The notes under the pieces were generated by a model. The model searched no databases. It was not told the DNA's origin and saw only the letters and a program-made list of their open reading frames with translations. Below, piece by piece: positions 514-9,702 of a stretch of DNA of 10,406 nt; position 1 is the first letter of the stretch; the number at the start of each line of letters is the position of its first letter. Both the position numbers and the translations under genes were made by a program. This stretch comes from CAVPRW01 sp046727435 [NCBI: bacterium] (GTDB lineage: Bacteria; Tectomicrobia; Entotheonellia; J063): assembly GCA_046727435.1 (NCBI GenBank), contig JBKPCR010000133.1:1-10406 (forward strand), written 5' to 3'.

Positions 514-549
514 ACCATCGAGGGCCTCAGGGGTGCTGCTGTGACCCCT
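496..549. terminator. Two small hairpins between convergent genes
   Basis: CTACCC (496-501) pairs with GGGTAG (508-513) across a 6-nt loop, and AGGGGT (529-534) pairs with ACCCCT (544-549) across a 9-nt loop. The second overlaps the SDR stop codon. They lie where the plus-strand small ORF and the minus-strand SDR converge, so they could attenuate readthrough from both sides. Neither has a U-tract, so this is not a classical intrinsic terminator. Confidence 0.25.
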
Positions 550-1318
550 ACGGCGCCACTTGCATCCCTACATCCAGCGGGAGCGACACGCCAATGATGA
601 AATTCGCCGCGGGGCTGGCTAGGAATAAGACCGCTTCGGCCACCTCCTCGGGCTCCGCGAAGCGGTGCAGCGGGATGCGCGCCTCTTTGACCCGCCGCTG
701 CTCAGCCCGCGCGGGAGCGTCCCAGACCTGGTGGCCCATCCCGGTCAGCACGATCGTGGGGCACACCGCGTTGACCTGGATGTTAGACGGCCCCCACTCC
801 ACGGCCATCGTCCGGGTTAACTGGTCGAGCCCCGCCTTCGAGGCCGCATATGCCCCGAGGCCCGGGGTCCCAAAGAAGACCCCGATGGAGGAGACGTTGA
901 CGATCTTGCCGCTCCTGCGAGCGATCATCTGGGGAACAATGATTTGTGACAACAGCAACACCGCCCGCAGGTTCAGGGCCGACACGGCATCCCAGTCCTC
1001 CGGCGTGATGTCCAGGAGCGGTGCCACCTTAGCGATGCCGGCGTCGTTCACCAGCACGTCCCACGGCGCGTGCCGCGCCAGGGCCGCCTCACCGGCCGAG
1101 CGCGCGCCCTCCACTGTCGCCAGATCCTGCTCGATCACGAGGCACTCCCGCCCGTACCGCTCCACGACCTGCTTGGTGTGTTCGAGCCCCTGGCGATCCC
1201 GCCCGACGATGCCGAGATCGGCCCCCGCCTCCGCAAACACTTTCGCGATGGCCGCCCCGATGCCTCACGAGGCCCCGGTCACCAATGCACGCTTGCCATC
1301 CAGTCGAAATGCTTCCAT
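548..1318 (-). pseudogene. Short-chain dehydrogenase/reductase (L-xylulose/sugar-alcohol dehydrogenase-like), nonsense-mutated
   Basis: Classical SDR, 256 codons from the ATG at 1318 to a TAG at 548-550. The start is fixed by a strong AGGAGG (1327-1332) 8 nt upstream. The family features are the Rossmann entry LVTGAS-stop-GIG (residues 12-21), a NNAG-equivalent motif reading NDAG, the VNVSS serine, the YAASK catalytic Tyr-Lys, and the VNAVCPT segment before an LTxMG loop typical of L-xylulose/threitol-type SDRs. Codon 18 is TGA (1265-1267), where family members usually have Arg or Ser, so the reading frame is cut inside the NAD(P)-binding glycine motif. Other normally conserved positions also look eroded: NNAG to NDAG, ITG to IIG, DGG to DVG. 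A GTG at 1240 could start a 230-aa product, but it would lack the glycine motif and could not bind cofactor normally. I call it a recent pseudogene. Confidence 0.85.
1265..1267 (-). other. Premature TGA in the SDR TGxxxGIG motif
   Basis: Reverse complement of TCA. The flanking codons give TGAS before and GIGAAIAK after, so the frame is undisturbed and a single codon is affected. A CGA to TGA transition (Arg to stop) is the simplest origin. Confidence 0.85.
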
Positions 1319-1332: not shown

Positions 1333-2274
1333 GGGGGATCGAAGCACCGCCCCTTGTAACCCAGTCGTCCAACGCAGTGGCCCGGCCCGATGGCGCCTCC
1401 GCAGCGCGGGAGCGACACCCAAGCAGCCGTCAGGTCCCGGCCGAGCGAGAAGGTTGACGGTTGCAATCATACACTCCTCCCCCTGGAGCCGGAAAGCCCG
1501 CATGGCATGGGCCAGCATGTCTGGCGACCCGGGCCGCCTCCCCCCAGCCGCCATGCTCCTGAGCAGTGCTCGTAACCACCCACCTCCATGGCATCGCCGG
1601 GCGCACCGCCCCATGATCGTGCACCTGACGATCGTCATACCCGCTATGCCGCTGCAACGTGCGCTCGTCATGGTGATCGTCACTATCCTCTCCGAGGGGA
1701 GTCTCATATACATATAATCTCGCGTACCTCCCAGACCTTACAGCTCTGACCACGTTGGCAGCTCGGTTCCAGTGAAATCATCATTGAGAGCGGCACACAC
1801 GCACAGAATCAGTCGCTCTCTCCGAAAGCTCCTGCTCGCTCGGAGTCTCGCGGAGGCTGAGTACGCGACCGCTGAACCTAACTTTGCCAGTATCATCATC
1901 GTGAACTGTGGGGGCGAAGTCCCAATGACCCTCCCATCTTCCGTCTCCTCCCTTCCCGCTGCGCAGATCTGAACATACTGGTCAAATCTGAACCGATCCC
2001 AGCCCGCCTGATCCTACAAGCGACGCCGTCCGGTCCCTGCTGCCGAACCCTCCCCCCTGGGTCATCCTACACAGCTGGGCGAGCTGCTCTGGTCACCCTG
2101 TATCACCGTTTTCAGTAATAAATTAAATGGATTGTCTTCGAGATCCTGAGCGGGCATGGCTCTTGCTTAAGAGTATGTCAAGACCTGCCTAAGCCCACGC
2201 CGCGAACGACCCTTGCTGGGTCAGGCCGGGAGCCCTCAGGCGTGGCTGGCAGAGCCCACCGGACACCTGCTCGT
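1333..2274. other. Stretch without a convincing gene
   Basis: About 940 bases with no ORF I can support. A minus-strand frame (1279-1713) contains a protein-like stretch (DMLAHAMRAFRLQGEECM, roughly 1460-1530) with G/C-rich third positions and may be a gene scrap, but it overlaps the SDR start out of frame and resembles nothing I know. A plus-strand frame at 1772-1972 (66 aa) is also unrecognised. The one clear feature is the dispersed repeat at 1699-1765. Confidence 0.5.
1699..1765 (+). repeat. Dispersed repeat, copy A
   Basis: Starts with the 20-mer GAGTCTCATATACATATAAT (1699-1718), identical to 7174-7193. Similarity continues with gaps through TCGCG, ACCTTAC and CCACGTTGGCAG to about 1765. 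Immediately upstream both copies also share CGAGG-n-GAG. The indels between copies (9 nt extra here, 3 nt extra in copy B) are multiples of three. The core contains a perfect TATAAT. No transposase or inverted partner is visible near this copy. Confidence 0.7.
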
Positions 2275-3026: not shown

Positions 3027-5156
3027 TTAGGGCATGGACGCCCCTCTCGGCTCCGCCAAAACCGCGCTGATCCGCACGAACTCCTGCTCCAACATCTGCA
3101 ACACCGTGGGCGCACCCACGAGATGGCCCGCTCGGCCTAGGGTCTCCAATTCAGATGCCAGATCATAGGCCACCGTGCGCCCGAAGATACTCAGGGCGCC
3201 TTTCAAGCTGTGGGCTGCCTGCGCCATCTGTTGGGCCGCTCTATGCTCAATGGCGCCTCGCAGCTCTTCGACCCGAGCGGGGTAATCCTGGCGAAACACC
3301 TCGATCACCTCCCGTAGTAAGGCCCGATCGCCGTCGACAGCGCTCAGGGCGCTAGCCAGATCGATCGGTGGCTCATCGGGAGGCGGGATAAGAACTGATC
3401 GGCTGCCCAGCACCTGCATGAGGACCGTGTCCAAATTGTCGCGCTTCAGGGGTTTCGACACATAGCCATCCATCCCAGCTGCCAGGCACTCCTCCTGATC
3501 GCCCTTCATGGCACGGGCCGTCATGGCCACAATAGGGATATGGCCCCCGCTCGTCTGCTCCCGTGCCCGGATGGCCGCCGTCGTTTCCAAGCCGTCCAGG
3601 ACGGGCATCTGCACATCCATAAGCACCAGATCGAAAGCTTGCTCCTCTAGGGCGTTCAGAGCGGCCTGACCATCGCCCACGACCGCGACCAGATGTCCTT
3701 GCTTCGCTAAGATGCTGACGGCCACCTTCTGGTTGACGAGGTTATCCTCCGCCAGCAGAATGCATAGGCGTGGGCGGCCTTCGCGGAGCGTATGCCGGGT
3801 GATGACGGGGGATAGTCTGGCCTTCGATGCTGGCTTCCCCAAGGCCTTGATGAGAGCCTCCCACAGCTCGCCCTGGGTAATCGGCTTCGTCAAATAGGCG
3901 CCGATACCCAACTCCCGGCAGCGGGCGGCATCGCCTCGCTGACCTCCAGAGGTCAACATCATGATGGTTGCCTCCGCCAGATCGGTATGCTGCTTGATCT
4001 GCTCAGCTAGGGTAAAGCCATCCATCCCTGGCATGTGGGCGTCGAGTAACACCAGGGGGAAAGGCGTGCTGGTCGCTCTGGCCTGTTTGAGGGCCACCAG
4101 GGCCGCCGCCCCACTGGCCACGGCCGTGGGCTGCATCTGCCAGTGGGTGAGTATCTCGACGAGGATGCGGCGGTTCGTCGTATTATCGTCTACCACCAAC
4201 ACGGGGAGGTTCTCGACATCTACAGCTTGCATGGGCACCGACTCCGTCAGCGCATCGCTGTCTATGCCGAAATGCGCGAGAAAATGAAACGTGCTCCCGT
4301 GGCCAACCTCGCTCTCCACCCAGAGCCGTCCCTGCATCAGGTGGACGAGTTTGCCTGCAATAGCCAGCCCGAGCCCGGTCCCTCCATACTGGCGTGTCGT
4401 CGAGCTATCGATCTGGGTGAAAGGCTCGAAGATTAGGCGTTGCTTCTCAGGTGGAATGCCTACGCCGGTATCCATCACCGCCACGTGCACCGAGACGTTG
4501 TCCCCTGTCTGCGCTTCCGTATCAACCTCCACCACCACTTCCCCCCGCTCGGTGAACTTGATGGCATTGCCGACCAGGTTGACGAGGATCTGGCGCAACC
4601 GGCCCGGATCGCCAATGAGGGCATCGGGGACCGTGGGATGCACATGGTAGACTAGTTCCAACCCCTTCTGGTGGGCTCGAAGGGCGAGGGTTTTTAGGGC
4701 GTGACCCAGACAATTGCGCAGGTGAAAGGGAATGGGCTCGAGATCGAGCTTGCCGGCTTCAATCTTCGAAAAATCGAGGATATCGTTGAGCACCGTCAGC
4801 AGCGCGTCGGCTGAGCTCTTCACGATCTCCAGGTACTCCCGCTGCTCAGCGGTGAGATCCGTGTCAAGGGTGAGGTCGGTCATGCCGATGACGCCGTTCA
4901 TAGGGGTGCGAATCTCGTGGCTCATGTTGGCTAAAAATTCGCTTTTGGCGCGGTTCGCCTTGAGCGCTTGATCCCGCGCCTCAGCGAGCTCAGCTGTACG
5001 CTCTGCGACCAATTCCTCCAAGTGTTCAGCCAACTGTCGAAGCTCCTGGTTGGCCTGATAGAGTTCAAGGCTCTTTTGTTCCAGCAGTGCCTCCGCCTCC
5101 TTGCGCGCTCTCTTCTCCCGGTCCAACCGCCCTTTCAGAAGTTCGACCTCGTTCAT
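3027..5156 (-). CDS. Soluble hybrid histidine kinase with two receivers and an HPt domain; H-NOX partner kinase
   Basis: 709 aa, intact. Order: N-terminal coiled coil (about 1-75, heptad-rich, ending in [20 protein letters not shown]); HisKA with phospho-acceptor H80 in [12 protein letters not shown]; HATPase_c with N box (NLVGNAIKF, about 192-201), G1 box DTGVGIP (229-235), F box (FEPFTQ) and G2 box (GGTGLGLAI); receiver 1 (about 317-440) with D323/D324, phospho-acceptor D372, T402 and K424; receiver 2 (about 464-585) with E470/D471, D514, T546 and K568; HPt (about 600-700) with H649 in AHSLKGA. All key residues are present, so a full His-Asp-His relay can run in one protein. There is no transmembrane segment and no sensor domain (PAS, GAF, CHASE): the input must come from a partner. 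That partner is almost certainly the H-NOX protein encoded 3 nt upstream. Translation is probably coupled, as only a weak GGGG lies before the ATG. The downstream response regulator is not in the window. Confidence 0.96.
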
Positions 5157-5159
5157 GAA

Positions 5160-5702
5160 TTAGCCCCGCTTAGTGAGCAAGAAGCGCACGCACGTTCCCT
5201 GCCCGCCGGATAGATCGTCACGTTGAATCTCGACATGCTCCCCGAAGTGCTCAGTACACCCTCTGATCAGTCCTTCTGCGAGATCGGCGAAGGCGCGTGG
5301 GGACCGGTACACCATCGTCAGCTGCCCCGGCTGAGAGGTACAGGTAAAACTGGGGAGCTCGGCGTTGGGGTACAACTTCCGCACCTCGACATGGATGTAT
5401 CTCTCAATGCTTTCCAAGAAGCCAAACGCCGATTGGATACCGACAAAGAAGTGCGGGTAATTGACAACAAACCGCCCGAAGAGGTGCTTGCCGAAGCTGC
5501 GCAACAAGTCTGGGACGACGATTCCAGTCTCCTGGCTGAGCTGTGTTACGAGTTGCACCATCTCGTGATGGTCATACGTTCCCACGGCCGTGTACGCGCC
5601 ACCTGACGGCAGATCGCAGGCCCCGATAATGCGGTCAGCGAGTTCCGGGGAGAATTGGTCTTCGATCATCTCCAGCAACTGTGTAAAAATCATGCCTTTC
5701 AT
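5160..5702 (-). CDS. H-NOX (haem NO-binding, HNOB) sensor protein
   Basis: 180 aa, the usual length of stand-alone bacterial H-NOX proteins. It begins MKGMIFTQLLEM, the typical H-NOX start. The proximal haem ligand is H104 (RYIHVEVRKLYP), and the haem-propionate-binding Y-x-S-x-R motif is YRSPR (132-136). Aligned with the Thermoanaerobacter tengcongensis H-NOX, I5 is kept, W9 is Leu, and the distal Tyr140 that stabilises bound O2 corresponds to L141. Absence of that Tyr predicts a sensor that binds NO (and CO) but excludes O2. In characterised systems NO-bound H-NOX controls a co-encoded histidine kinase; here the hybrid kinase starts 3 nt after this stop (TAA 5160-5162). The start is supported by AGGAGGT (5708-5714). 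The protein is cytoplasmic, with no signal peptide. Confidence 0.96.
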   Translation of the reverse strand: MKGMIFTQLLEMIEDQFSPELADRIIGACDLPSGGAYTAVGTYDHHEMVQLVTQLSQETGIVVPDLLRSFGKHLFGRFVVNYPHFFVGIQSAFGFLESIERYIHVEVRKLYPNAELPSFTCTSQPGQLTMVYRSPRAFADLAEGLIRGCTEHFGEHVEIQRDDLSGGQGTCVRFLLTKRG

Positions 5703-5705
5703 GAC

Positions 5706-5927
5706 CTACCTCCTCGGTGGTCGCACCGTGGCCCGCCTGACTCCCTCTGGGAGCGTCGTCTCGAGCGATGCTCCGTGTGCGGTCGGCTCGGGCATGGGCA
5801 TGCCAAAGGTGTGCAGGCCTTCATGGTGCACGGCCATGGCCCCCCGGAAAGGGCGTTCTCCCGCTTCACTGCGCTCTCCAAGCGCGACATCCTTCAGCAG
5901 GCCCGGTACATAGGCCCCTCGTAGCGC
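5706..5927 (-). CDS. Possible small or N-truncated ORF upstream of H-NOX
   Basis: An open frame of 73 codons on the minus strand, ending with TAG (5706-5708) only 3 nt before the H-NOX ATG. That spacing mirrors the H-NOX/kinase junction and suggests coupling. The peptide looks protein-like (AYVPGLLKDVALGERSEAGE, then RPFRGAMAVHHEGLHTFGMP), but I do not recognise it. It is bounded upstream by TGA (5928-5930); beyond that stop the same frame has an ATG a few codons earlier (MRRRNRIG). The only internal ATG is at 5837, giving 43 aa without a clear Shine-Dalgarno. It may be a gene broken by a stop, or simply the H-NOX leader region. Confidence 0.35.
   Translation of the reverse strand, partial: ALRGAYVPGLLKDVALGERSEAGERPFRGAMAVHHEGLHTFGMPMPEPTAHGASLETTLPEGVRRATVRPPRR
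5708..5714 (-). promoter_or_regulatory. Shine-Dalgarno AGGAGGT for H-NOX
   Basis: Near-perfect anti-16S complement 5 nt before the ATG at 5702. It overlaps the TAG of the upstream small frame. Confidence 0.8.
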
Positions 5928-6946: not shown

Positions 6947-7174
6947 AGAGGCATCCACCGCGTCGCCGGCCGCACCGGCGACCGCACGGCGTGGGTCACG
7001 ACCCGCCCGTGTCGCGCGCCCCACCACACCATCTCGGAGGTGGGGCTGATCGGCGGGGGCCACGTGCCGAGGCCGGGTGACGTGTCGCTGGCCCACAAGG
7101 GCGTGCGCTTCCTGGATGCATGGCCCGAGTTTCGCCGCCATGTCCTGGAGGTCTTGCGCCAACCACTCGAGGAG
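6947..7174 (+). pseudogene. Internal fragment of a YifB/ComM-type AAA+ (Mg-chelatase-like) ATPase
   Basis: The frame reads [46 protein letters not shown] and [17 protein letters not shown]. This matches the central part of YifB/ComM ATPases, (R/T)RPFRxPHHTIS(D/E)xxLIGGG-x-(P/V)PxPGEVSLAHxGVLFLDELPEF. Only about 76 of some 500 residues remain. The Walker A region and C-terminus are missing, and the Walker B Glu is lost (FLDEL reads FLDAW), so this is an eroded fragment. At its 3' end it runs directly into the dispersed repeat after PLEE, giving ESLIYI and a TAA instead of the expected continuation. ComM is a helicase in natural transformation; no function is expected here. Confidence 0.8.
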
Positions 7175-7235
7175 AGTCTCATATACATATAATAATTTCG
7201 CGGATGTCCTTGACCTTACCACGGTGGCAGCGCTC
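7174..7235 (+). repeat. Dispersed repeat, copy B
   Basis: Copy of the 1699-1765 repeat, starting with the same GAGTCTCATATACATATAAT. It abuts, within a codon, the point where the YifB-like fragment stops matching its family, so the repeat's left edge is a true junction. Similarity runs through TTCGCGGA, ACCTTAC and CACGGTGGCAG. Confidence 0.7.
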
Positions 7236-7673: not shown

Positions 7674-7863
7674 TTTGGCAGAAAGGTGCATGACTACCTT
7701 GGTAGCAGCTCTTATACTAATTCACTGGGACGTTGTCTTGATGTATTCGACACCATGTCGCCCCTAGGGATAGGCGGTCCATGGCACCAGAGCTAAGGGG
7801 TACTCCCAATATCGGCGGAGCACCTGGGTTAGCGAGGCTTCCGAGGTCTCGAATATGACTTTG

Positions 7864-8914
7864 CTATGAACACAGTGCATGAATGGCTTCCAGCAAATAT
7901 GCCTATCCAGTGAGGGATTGCAGAGTGGGCGCGTCATAGGCCTGCAACAAGTTGCCGACATCGACCTGTTGCGCCTCAAGGTCGACGAATTACTGCCAGG
8001 CCAGGTCGACCTTCACGTCACGCCAGACCCGCTCAATCGGGTTCAGCTCGGGACCGTAGGGTGGGAGCCATACGGACTGCACATGTGCAGGCCATCGAAT
8101 CCGTTGAGCCGTATGGGCGCCACTGTTATCCAAGAGCAAGAGATTGAAGCTGTCGGGAAAGGCCTGCGCCAAGGCGTCGACGAAGAGCTGAAAGGTGTCG
8201 GCATTCAGATACGGCAGCTCCAGGAACAACCGCTCGCCCGTGGTCGGGGCGACGGCGCCGTAGATGTAGAACCATTCAAAGGTTTACTGGATCGGCCCCA
8301 CGGGTTGAACCCCGCAGGCCGTCAGCCGTCGGCGGCGCACGGTGAGTCACCCCACACGCCTTTCATCCTGGCTGAACACACGCACCGGTCGGGTCTGCTC
8401 CGATGGCATGGCACGCTGCAGCGGCTCCTGACAGGTCGCCTGCAACGTGGGAATGGCTTCAGGGTGTTTTGGTGTGACTGGGGCGTGGGACCTTGAGCGT
8501 GGCCTTGAACCGGGTCCGCACGATGGTGTAGAGCGTGTGAGCGTGGACCTCCAGCTGAAAGGTCTGCTGGACCCAGTGCCGTAGCGCTTCATAGGAGGCA
8601 AACCCGGCCGGCTGCTGGAGGGCCCGCTCAATGGCGGCCAACACGTCTGGGGGCAGCGAGAGGGGCTTGCCAGCCGTGATATAGACCTCCAGCAAAGCCG
8701 CCAAGCCACTCACTTCGTAGAGGGCGAGCCGGTGGCCGATGGTGTGGCGATGCACCCCCACCAGGTGGGCCACCTCCTGGCGGCTCTGCGCGTGCCCACT
8801 GGCCAGGAAGTAGAGCCTCTGGAGCCGTGGTTTCTTACGACCATCATGTTCACGTGGTAAGCTCTGCTTAAGCGTGTCTGCAGGCTCGGTCATGAGGGGT
8901 AGAGGTTTGTGCAT
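7864..8914 (-). pseudogene. IS630-family transposase of element 1, with frameshift and three stops
   Basis: Start ATG at 8914 with GGGAGG nearby. The N-terminal winged-helix/HTH part is intact to about 8461 (QSRQEVAHLVGVHRHTIGHR, LPPDVLAAIERALQQPAGF). A 1-nt insertion near 8461 shifts the frame at SHTKTP/EAIPTL. Then come VFSQDERRVG (first catalytic Asp; DES has become DER), TGA (8347-8349), TAA (8284-8286), TFEWFYIYGAVAPTTGERLF, LLLLDNSGAH (second Asp), LPPYGPELNPIERVW (catalytic Glu), TAA (7990-7992) and TAG (7903-7905), ending in IHALCS and a TAG at 7864-7866. With these repaired it would be about 350 aa, normal for the family. The catalytic DDE residues survive, so decay is moderate. Confidence 0.9.
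7867..7881 (+). repeat. Left terminal inverted repeat of element 1
   Basis: Perfect 15-bp match to the reverse complement of 8965-8979. The transposase stop TAG lies just outside it, in the TA target. Confidence 0.9.
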
Positions 8915-8964
8915 CGCCTGCCCTCCCAACGGACCGCTGAAACCCTCAGCAAGGATAGCAGTAC

Positions 8965-8979
8965 CATGCACTGTGTTCA
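8965..8979 (-). repeat. Right terminal inverted repeat of element 1
   Basis: Perfect 15-bp partner of 7867-7881, about 50 bases upstream of the transposase ATG. Confidence 0.9.
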
Positions 8980-9702
8980 ATCAAAACTCATATAAGGGGT
9001 CGTGGACGTGTTTCGAGAGCGCTTGGCGCCGCTCCTTGAACCACCGCTCACCAGGATTGAGTTCGGGACTATAGGCAGGTAAAGGCACCGTTCGATGCCG
9101 TCCGGCCACCACACGTGGCCGCTTGTGTGCACCCCACTGTCATCAAGCACCACGGCCCATGGCCCAGCGGGCAATGCCTGCCGCCACTCATGTAGAAACA
9201 GCTCAAAGCAGGCGCCATCCAGTCGGGGGAGGAAGAGGCAGAAACTCTGGCCAGCGGTAGTCGATCCCCCACTACTCCCGCAAATAGCGTTGGGCCTCTT
9301 TGAGCCGGGCGATTGGGCCCACTCGCATCTCAATGCTTAGGGCCGTCCAGACCTTAGGGGCACTCATTCGTGCCGACCTGGACGCGGTTGCCATTGCACC
9401 AACGCCTCCAGCCCACGGCTCGTATAGGTCGCCCACCACCGTTGCAGTTGCCGTGCACTATAGCCGAGGACCGGCGCAGCGGCCCGCACGCTGCAGATAG
9501 TGCGTGTTTTCAGCAGGCGTAAGAGCTTGACCCGGTCGCCGATGGGTCGGCTCCGGAGCCGCCTCTCTAAGGCGAATAGAGCTGGTGTGCTCCGGGGGAT
9601 CGGTTCTCCATAGCCGATCCACATGACATCCTTGGCGATGGGCTTGTCGGGGCGAAATGACTTCGCCACTCCCCGGTAGCTTAACTTACCGACATGAGCA
9701 AG

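What the first reader, a model, noticed from the sequence alone, without database searches (positions are those of the whole stretch)
3027..5702. H-NOX paired with a sensorless hybrid kinase that carries its whole phosphorelay
Seen: H-NOX and a 709-aa kinase separated by 3 nt. The kinase has no membrane or sensory domain but has HisKA, HATPase, two intact receivers and an HPt, with H80, D372, D514 and H649 all present. Known: H-NOX proteins regulate co-encoded histidine kinases in NO signalling (biofilm, quorum sensing), often through a kinase with one receiver or a separate HPt. Inference: the N-terminal coiled coil is the docking site for H-NOX, and having two receivers plus HPt in one chain allows two competing or gated inputs before phosphate leaves the protein. 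This is the most likely working system in the window.
Basis: partly seen in the sequence, partly recalled or inferred. Interest (0 to 1): 0.65.

Follow-up and report, generated by a model that had tools for sequence, protein, structure and literature searches.

The report
Nitric-oxide sensor with all-in-one relay kinase
A small bacterial nitric-oxide sensor protein is encoded next to a kinase that carries a whole signal relay in one chain, and the kinase begins with a short helix also found at the start of most enzymes paired with this sensor in related loci, which is probably the plug by which the sensor holds its partner.

Summary
Window 5160-5702(-) is an intact H-NOX gene; 3 nt downstream, 3027-5156(-) encodes a soluble 709-aa hybrid kinase (HisKA, HATPase, two receivers, HPt) with H80, D372, D514 and H649 present. 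H-NOX with a sensorless hybrid kinase is a known kind (HqsK, HnoK). HPt in the chain is a minority form (6 of 77 H-NOX partners scanned). One other H-NOX locus with the same full architecture was found, in the phylum of a Nitrospirales MAG, followed by a REC-PAS-GGDEF-EAL gene.

The coiled-coil docking inference gains most. The kinase's first ~40 residues are a conserved helix, directly downstream of H-NOX in 81 of 87 H-NOX loci, on kinases, diguanylate cyclases, GGDEF-EAL proteins and a class III cyclase. In 398 Pseudomonadota genomes all 29 strong matches sit beside H-NOX; 20 of 26 weak ones do not. Helix residue 6 covaries with H-NOX residue 24 as a charge switch (likelihood ratio 49, p 5e-10; first among the pairs tested). 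A shared docking helix that fits the second H-NOX helix is the new, testable point. NO response, its direction and the phosphate path are inferred. The 'two gated inputs' idea is untested.

The parts
5160..5702 (-). H-NOX (heme NO-binding) gene, 180 aa
   Evidence: ORF; Pfam HNOB E 3.6e-40; 43% identical to S. woodyi H-NOX 6OCV in a structural alignment
5709..5715 (-). Probable ribosome-binding site (GAGGAGG) of H-NOX
   Evidence: sequence
5619..5648 (-). Second H-NOX helix (residues 19-28), taken as helix B, inferred docking face; residue 24 is R here
   Evidence: helix 19-28 in AF2 model; residues 24 and 20 covary with kinase residue 6 in the family
5391..5393 (-). H-NOX H104, expected proximal heme ligand
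   Evidence: invariant column; role recalled
3027..5156 (-). Soluble hybrid histidine kinase, 709 aa
   Evidence: ORF; Pfam
5031..5144 (-). Kinase residues 5-42: conserved N-terminal helix shared by H-NOX partners (inferred docking module)
4950..5030 (-). Kinase residues 43-69: continuing linker helix to HisKA
   Evidence: AF2 model gives one helix through kinase residue 69
4752..4949 (-). HisKA domain, residues 70-135, phospho-acceptor H80 at 4917-4919
4278..4613 (-). HATPase_c domain, residues 182-293
   Evidence: motif boxes
3846..4202 (-). Receiver 1, about residues 319-437, D372 at 4041-4043 (borders estimated from motifs)
3426..3761 (-). Receiver 2, residues 466-577, D514 at 3615-3617
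3069..3311 (-). HPt domain, residues 616-696, H649 at 3210-3212

Best explanation
This is a two-gene cytosolic nitric-oxide signalling unit. H-NOX binds NO at its heme. Through its second helix (and probably the helix that carries the heme ligand) it holds the N-terminal helix (residues 5-42) of the kinase, which continues as one helix into HisKA. Without NO the kinase autophosphorylates on H80; NO-bound H-NOX lowers autophosphorylation or turns the kinase into a phosphatase. Phosphate passes from H80 to a receiver Asp (D372 or D514, more likely D514), to H649 and then to a separate response regulator outside the window, perhaps a c-di-GMP enzyme such as the REC-PAS-GGDEF-EAL protein encoded after the same pair in another genome. 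Shown here: gene pair, domains, intact residues, the shared H-NOX-linked helix, covariation. Inferred: binding, NO effect and its sign, phosphate route, output.
For: Domains and residues. Helix on the partner directly downstream of H-NOX in 81 of 87 loci. Of 77 helix-bearing partners scanned, 65 match HATPase_c, 11 GGDEF, 7 EAL and 1 Guanylate_cyc; 8 of the 12 nearly invariant columns of their alignment lie in the helix (R13, E14, A17, R18, A21, E22, E26, K28). 398 Pseudomonadota genomes: 29 of 29 matches with E<=1e-9 adjacent to H-NOX; 50 of 52 genomes with the helix hold H-NOX against 52 of 346 without (Fisher 3e-32). 194 Verrucomicrobiota genomes: helix in 6, H-NOX in 7, all 6 helices just downstream of H-NOX. 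Nitrospirota: 3 of 3 helix places adjacent. Helix residue 6 x H-NOX residue 24: LR 49.4, p 4.9e-10; next H-NOX column LR 22, in the same helix; LR 47-50 on three further trees, 40 on 83 HisKA kinases alone. Literature: NO-H-NOX inhibits HqsK (PMC6759604, abstract and passages); HDX-MS places the H-NOX/HnoK contact at helices A-C and F (PMC7108781, passages). Same architecture in L174 with REC-PAS-GGDEF-EAL next.
Against: No binding or NO data. AF2 on the H-NOX-helix read-through gave pTM 0.71 and neither coordinates nor a docking score, so it does not show docking. The window carries the other class at the covarying pair (R24/L6), so no salt bridge is predicted there. The treekit sign test on supported branches had 2 and 6 pairs and could not decide. 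In Caulobacter NO-bound H-NOX did not inhibit HnoK (PMC12329717, abstract and passages). 20 of 55 helix matches, all with E>1e-9, lie away from H-NOX, 2 of them in genomes where no H-NOX was found. Five of 13 stand-alone H-NOX genes without a helix match showed neither helix, weak helix nor HNOBA beside them. Neighbouring genes in the window are broken.
Confidence: 0.72

Rival explanations
1. The N-terminal helix is only a dimerisation or signalling helix of the partners; H-NOX docks on the HisKA/HATPase core instead.
For: The helix runs on into the HisKA coiled coil (one helix in AF2); signalling helices are widespread in sensor kinases and cyclases (PMC1592074, abstract start and passages).
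Against: The same helix is on GGDEF, GGDEF-EAL and class III cyclase partners that have no HisKA or HATPase. Strong profile matches in 398 + 194 + 148 genomes were all beside H-NOX. Its residue 6 covaries with one H-NOX helix beyond the other columns tested.
Confidence: 0.18
2. The H-NOX is chiefly a redox (Cys/zinc) sensor, as reported for Caulobacter and V. cholerae, rather than an NO sensor.
For: Caulobacter H-NOX acts on HnoK only after Cys oxidation (PMC12329717, abstract and passages).
Against: Of the four S. oneidensis H-NOX cysteines in the aligned C-terminal stretch only the last (window C171) is matched; window A139, L141 and L164 stand opposite the others (alignment; which cysteines ligate zinc is from PMC7108781 passages and recall).
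Confidence: 0.08
3. The unit is a relic: the two genes are intact by chance in a decaying stretch and the downstream part of the relay is lost.
For: The neighbouring SDR gene has an in-frame stop, transposase-like frames are in pieces, and no response regulator was found in 10.4 kb.
Against: Both genes are full length with all catalytic residues, GC3 of the kinase 0.74; an H-NOX kinase can act on an unlinked partner (LuxU in V. parahaemolyticus, PMC6759604 passages).
Confidence: 0.1
4. Receiver 1 and receiver 2 take separate inputs and compete or gate the relay.
For: Both receivers keep their active-site residues.
Against: No second input or second kinase was found in the window; two-receiver partners without HPt and one-receiver partners with HPt both occur, so the two features are not tied.
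Confidence: 0.12

Closest known systems
V. parahaemolyticus / V. harveyi H-NOX-HqsK
   Same: H-NOX gene beside a cytosolic hybrid kinase without sensor domain; His-Asp-His relay (PMC6759604, PMC6769237, passages)
   Different: HqsK has one receiver and uses the separate HPt LuxU; here two receivers and HPt are in the chain
S. oneidensis / V. cholerae H-NOX-HnoK-HnoB
   Same: NO-sensing H-NOX controls an adjacent kinase (PMC7108781, PMC8846402, passages)
   Different: [quoted passage not shown] L159-L161 look like this type (my inference; genomes unnamed): their partners show only a diverged N-terminus that the helix profile barely scores
S. woodyi H-NOX with its DGC/PDE partner
   Same: Best-scoring H-NOX of known structure by sequence (6OCV; 43% identity)
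   Different: Partner is a DGC-PDE enzyme (PMC8846402, passages), not a kinase; its sequence was not seen here
   Same: Helix-HisKA-HATPase-REC-REC-HPt, kinase 46% identical over 1-693, H-NOX 59%
   Different: Followed by a REC-PAS-GGDEF-EAL gene (cut at the end of the stretch), absent in the window
H-NOX with HNOBA-bearing partners, and soluble guanylate cyclase
   Same: H-NOX acting on a separate or fused output enzyme
   Different: These partners have HNOBA instead of the helix (L156, L157, L158, L165, L169); the sGC comparison is recalled

Membership tests
H-NOX (HNOB, PF07700) | Whole-domain profile match over the curated cut-off | tested here: met
   138 bits, cut-off 25.5, residues 2-160
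H-NOX (HNOB, PF07700) | Proximal His, conserved Pro and Y-x-S-x-R motif | tested here: met
   H104, P117, Y132/S134/R136; roles recalled
H-NOX (HNOB, PF07700) | Heme binding and NO selectivity | not testable with these tools
   needs protein; the distal pocket was not mapped to an O2-binding H-NOX here
Cys-zinc redox H-NOX | Full set of zinc-ligand cysteines | tested here: not met
   one of four aligned S. oneidensis cysteines matched; ligand identity from PMC7108781 passages and recall
H-NOX-associated hybrid kinase (HqsK/HnoK kind) | Adjacent to H-NOX, cytosolic, no sensor domain, hybrid | tested here: met
H-NOX-associated hybrid kinase (HqsK/HnoK kind) | Kinase activity changed by NO-bound H-NOX | not testable with these tools
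   needs assay
H-NOX-associated hybrid kinase (HqsK/HnoK kind) | Single receiver with separate HPt (HqsK layout) | tested here: not met
   two receivers and HPt in the chain
Conserved N-terminal helix of H-NOX partners (defined here) | Conserved 38-column helix at the N-terminus of a gene next to H-NOX | tested here: met
   window is row 1 of the profile with 57 other loci, 34-71% identical to it, so this is by construction; found independently by phmmer from the window; adjacency
Signalling helix (S-helix) | Match to the published S-helix profile | not tested
   profile not available here

The most novel reading that the evidence does not exclude
Bacteria use one short, transferable docking helix as a general plug for stand-alone H-NOX: an output enzyme (hybrid kinase, diguanylate cyclase, GGDEF-EAL, class III cyclase) that carries it at its N-terminus becomes NO-responsive. 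Specificity between pairs is set in part by a charge switch between helix residue 6 and H-NOX residue 24 on the second H-NOX helix. Kinases carrying a variant helix far from H-NOX are further, unlinked clients.
Probability: 0.5. Interest if true: 0.72.

Novelty: new variant of a known kind. Interest (0 to 1): 0.56.

Why it matters
How H-NOX recognises its partners is open: a 2022 review states that no high-resolution structure of H-NOX with a signalling partner exists (PMC8738867, passage). The shared helix and the residue 6/residue 24 covariation give a specific, small target for mutation, a way to look for H-NOX clients that are not genetically linked, and a candidate tag for putting other enzymes under NO control. 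The window pair itself adds a self-contained HisKA-REC-REC-HPt version of the relay.

Tried and rejected
Whole-genome context of the window: none held, so host and cognate regulator stay unknown. Among the loci compared, the kinase scores best against L174, L026 and L173, all of the Nitrospirales MAG's phylum (loci L100 and above other than these were not compared), but the best H-NOX hit by identity is a Myxococcales MAG (L008, 65%), so I name no host. L008's next frames lack the helix.

Structure route: AF2 of H-NOX read through into kinase residues 1-70 (39 rows, 19 of them paired) gave pLDDT 91.5 and pTM 0.71 but no coordinates; VIA-align rows matched only the H-NOX part, residues 1-183. 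Docking is therefore not shown by structure. No solved chain has the helix by sequence: 2 matches up to E 1, best E 0.25.

Covariation: mutual information with a HisKA/HATPase comparison in 83 kinases put the helix in 4 of the top 10 pairs (14% expected), but in 20% of the top 20 and 17% of the top 200; mean-field DCA gave many inter-protein pairs of unclear meaning. Only the residue 6/24 pair stood out after the Pagel test. That test covered 12 random control columns (highest LR 13), 173 column comparisons (the main pair is in it three times under different codings; H-NOX residue 123, outside the helix, came third at LR 19.5) and the 450 highest-MI of 4,402 pairs; the other 3,952 pairs were not tested. 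The trees are weakly supported; treekit's pair test was undecided. Of 121 rows, 2 lack H-NOX column 24, and L143 and L143b are pieces of one broken H-NOX. I coded residue 6 as R/K against the rest and residue 24 as D against the rest after seeing the table; coding each column by its commonest residue gave LR 48.2.

Census counts: of 87 H-NOX loci, 81 have the helix on the direct downstream partner; L074 has it in a separate short ORF, L073 on a gene upstream in the same direction, L006, L008 and L086 have none, L037 is not assessable at a contig end. The 6 of 77 HPt count leaves out L017, L023, L026, L056 and L059 (too long or cut), of which L026 and L059 have HPt by Pfam. L173's HPt-like tail has no His at the expected place by eye and no Pfam Hpt match.

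Viral contigs: 12 relatives of the kinase at 30-39% identity, not followed. The 26-nt repeat has no exact 20-nt match in viral contigs. Rfam and tRNA scans of the window were empty. Papers on HDX-MS and NMR mapping of the interface (Rao 2017, Guo 2018, Lahiri 2014) are not held; they may already contain part of the docking result. I found no description of the shared helix in searches (listings, plus the passages I opened).
Full report
What is there. On the minus strand the window holds two full-length genes 3 nt apart: H-NOX (5160-5702, 180 aa) and a hybrid kinase (3027-5156, 709 aa). Pfam finds HNOB in the first and HisKA, HATPase_c, two receiver stretches and HPt in the second, nothing else at E<=0.001. 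The rest of the window looks poor in intact genes: an SDR gene cut by an in-frame stop, transposase-like frames in pieces, and no other frame of 90 aa or more with a kinase, receiver or HPt domain by local profiles.

Related loci. The plasmid H-NOX genes have neighbours annotated as EAL, GGDEF, ATP-binding or response-regulator proteins in six records; the seventh has no annotation. This gives 87 H-NOX loci, from many phyla by record title. The partner is nearly always the next gene downstream. Of 77 helix-bearing partners scanned one by one (window included), 65 match HATPase_c, 62 HisKA, 57 a receiver, 11 GGDEF, 7 EAL, 6 HPt and 1 the class III cyclase domain. So the kinase type is common and the HPt-bearing type a minority. 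The Paenibacillus partners have two receivers and no HPt by local profiles, and a separate receiver gene follows.

Closest match. In 148 genomes of the phylum of a Nitrospirales MAG (genome of L026), three carry the helix described below, all three beside H-NOX. One, L174, has the architecture of the window: helix, HisKA, HATPase, two receivers (Pfam splits them into three stretches), HPt (765 aa, 46% identity over window residues 1-693; H-NOX 59%). A REC-PAS-GGDEF-EAL frame overlaps its end and runs off the fetched stretch. That gene is the best candidate for the kind of output the window kinase would feed, by analogy only. L026 has the same parts plus GAF; L173 has GAF, two receivers and an HPt-like tail that lacks the His by eye and has no Pfam Hpt match.

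The N-terminal helix. The first ~40 residues of the partners, whatever enzyme follows, share a strong consensus, LxRRLxRERxARKxAExLLExKSRELYxANxxL. In the whole-partner alignment 8 of the 12 nearly invariant columns lie here. It is on the direct downstream partner in 81 of 87 loci. No Pfam family reaches its cut-off on it and no solved chain shows it.

Is it specific to H-NOX? A 38-column profile of 58 rows (58 of the 82 available) was run over 398 genomes of the phylum of a Thiothrix MAG (Pseudomonadota by the record title). It matched 55 places in 52 genomes. I examined all 55, 30 with 1.5 kb and 25 with up to 3 kb on each side. All 29 places with E<=1e-9 lie directly downstream of H-NOX; of 26 weaker ones 6 do. 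At least one of the 29 (G001) is itself a row of the profile. Of the 20 away from H-NOX, 18 lie in genomes that have H-NOX elsewhere and 2 (G052, G351) in genomes without. H-NOX was found in 102 of the 398 genomes: 50 of 52 with the helix, 52 of 346 without. In the phylum of a Verrucomicrobiales MAG, 6 of 194 genomes have the helix and 7 of 194 H-NOX; all 6 helices follow H-NOX; at least one of the 6 (G005) is a profile row. A strong helix without H-NOX within 3 kb also exists: L155 (52.6 bits), in a genome (G004) whose known H-NOX is elsewhere.

What H-NOX genes without the helix have instead. Of 13 stand-alone H-NOX loci of Pseudomonadota without a helix match (L156-L168), four have HNOBA-bearing partners (L156, L157, L158, L165), three have kinases with a diverged N-terminus that I read as a form of the helix (L159-L161), one has a nearby kinase frame with a weak helix (L163, 11.7 bits), two have a ~626-aa partner without it (L164, GGDEF-EAL by Pfam, and L166), and three showed no clear partner (L162, L167, L168). 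The H-NOX genes of genomes with unlinked helix kinases were viewed in two cases: L169 sits beside an HNOBA-GGDEF gene, L170 was not resolved. Two long H-NOX frames are H-NOX-PilZ fusions (L171, L172). So the helix is one of several ways to couple H-NOX, and the commonest in the loci closest to the window.

Contact between helix and H-NOX. From 121 neighbouring pairs, kinase residue 6 (R/K or not) and H-NOX residue 24 (D or not) go together: 26 of 34 R/K rows have D, 8 of 85 others do. With R/K at residue 6, H-NOX residue 24 is never R or K (0 of 34 rows with a residue there); with a hydrophobic residue at 6 it is R or K in 25 of 71. Pagel's test on an H-NOX tree built without columns 14-28 gives LR 49.4, p 4.9e-10. 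Against the same trait the next H-NOX column is residue 20 (LR 22.0), then 123 (19.5) and 21 (18.4); 20 and 21 lie in the same helix as 24, residue 123 does not. Among the 450 pairs with highest mutual information of 4,402, LR 48.2 is first and 20.8 second; multiplied by 4,402 the p-value is still about 4e-6. The result holds on three other trees and in 83 HisKA kinases alone. Published HDX-MS puts the H-NOX/HnoK contact at helices A-C and F (PMC7108781, passages), which fits the second helix. Caveats: weakly supported trees, coding chosen after seeing the data, and the sign test on supported branches undecided. In the window the pair is R24/L6, the second class.

How it most likely works. H-NOX senses NO, holds the kinase by its N-terminal helix and changes the helix that runs into HisKA (AF2 draws one helix). 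By precedent (HqsK, HnoK; PMC6759604, PMC7108781, passages) NO-bound H-NOX lowers kinase activity; the exception in Caulobacter (PMC12329717, abstract and passages) means the sign must be measured. Phosphate then runs from H80 to a receiver to H649 to an external regulator. Which receiver relays, and whether the other one regulates, cannot be told from sequence.

Membership and novelty. H-NOX: yes by profile and motifs. H-NOX-associated hybrid kinase: yes by layout, activity untested; the HqsK layout (one receiver, separate HPt) is not met. The window unit is a variant of a known kind. The general finding, one helix shared by unrelated H-NOX clients with a mapped contact, was not found in print in my ten library searches (listed under Tried and rejected), but three papers on the interface could not be read.

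Noticed in passing
window 548-1318 (-): Short-chain dehydrogenase gene (Pfam E 2e-52) with an in-frame stop in its cofactor-binding motif; looks like a pseudogene.
   Followed up: partly
window 1693-1718 and 7168-7193: 26-nt direct repeat (96%) 5.5 kb apart that brackets the H-NOX/kinase pair; no exact 20-nt match in viral contigs. Origin unknown.
   Followed up: partly
window 7853-8993: 29-nt inverted repeats (83%) around a frame with a weak helix-turn-helix match: probable IS remnant; a further helix-turn-helix frame at 9364-9669.
   Followed up: no
L087 7001-8947: Planctomycete H-NOX beside a helix-GAF-class III cyclase: an in-trans counterpart of soluble guanylate cyclase.
   Followed up: partly
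L171 and L172 2227-3486 (-): H-NOX fused to PilZ in single 419-aa proteins; many H-NOX frames of 400-470 aa may be the same kind.
   Followed up: partly
L128, L129, L134-L137, L140, L142, L144-L146, L150-L152, L154: Hybrid kinases with a variant helix, not beside H-NOX, in genomes with H-NOX elsewhere; one of the two such H-NOX genes viewed sits beside an HNOBA-GGDEF gene (L169). Candidate unlinked H-NOX clients.
   Followed up: partly
L132 and L139: Second, weaker helix copies on HATPase proteins next to a 360-aa protein not assigned to a family here, in genomes that also have a normal H-NOX pair.
   Followed up: no
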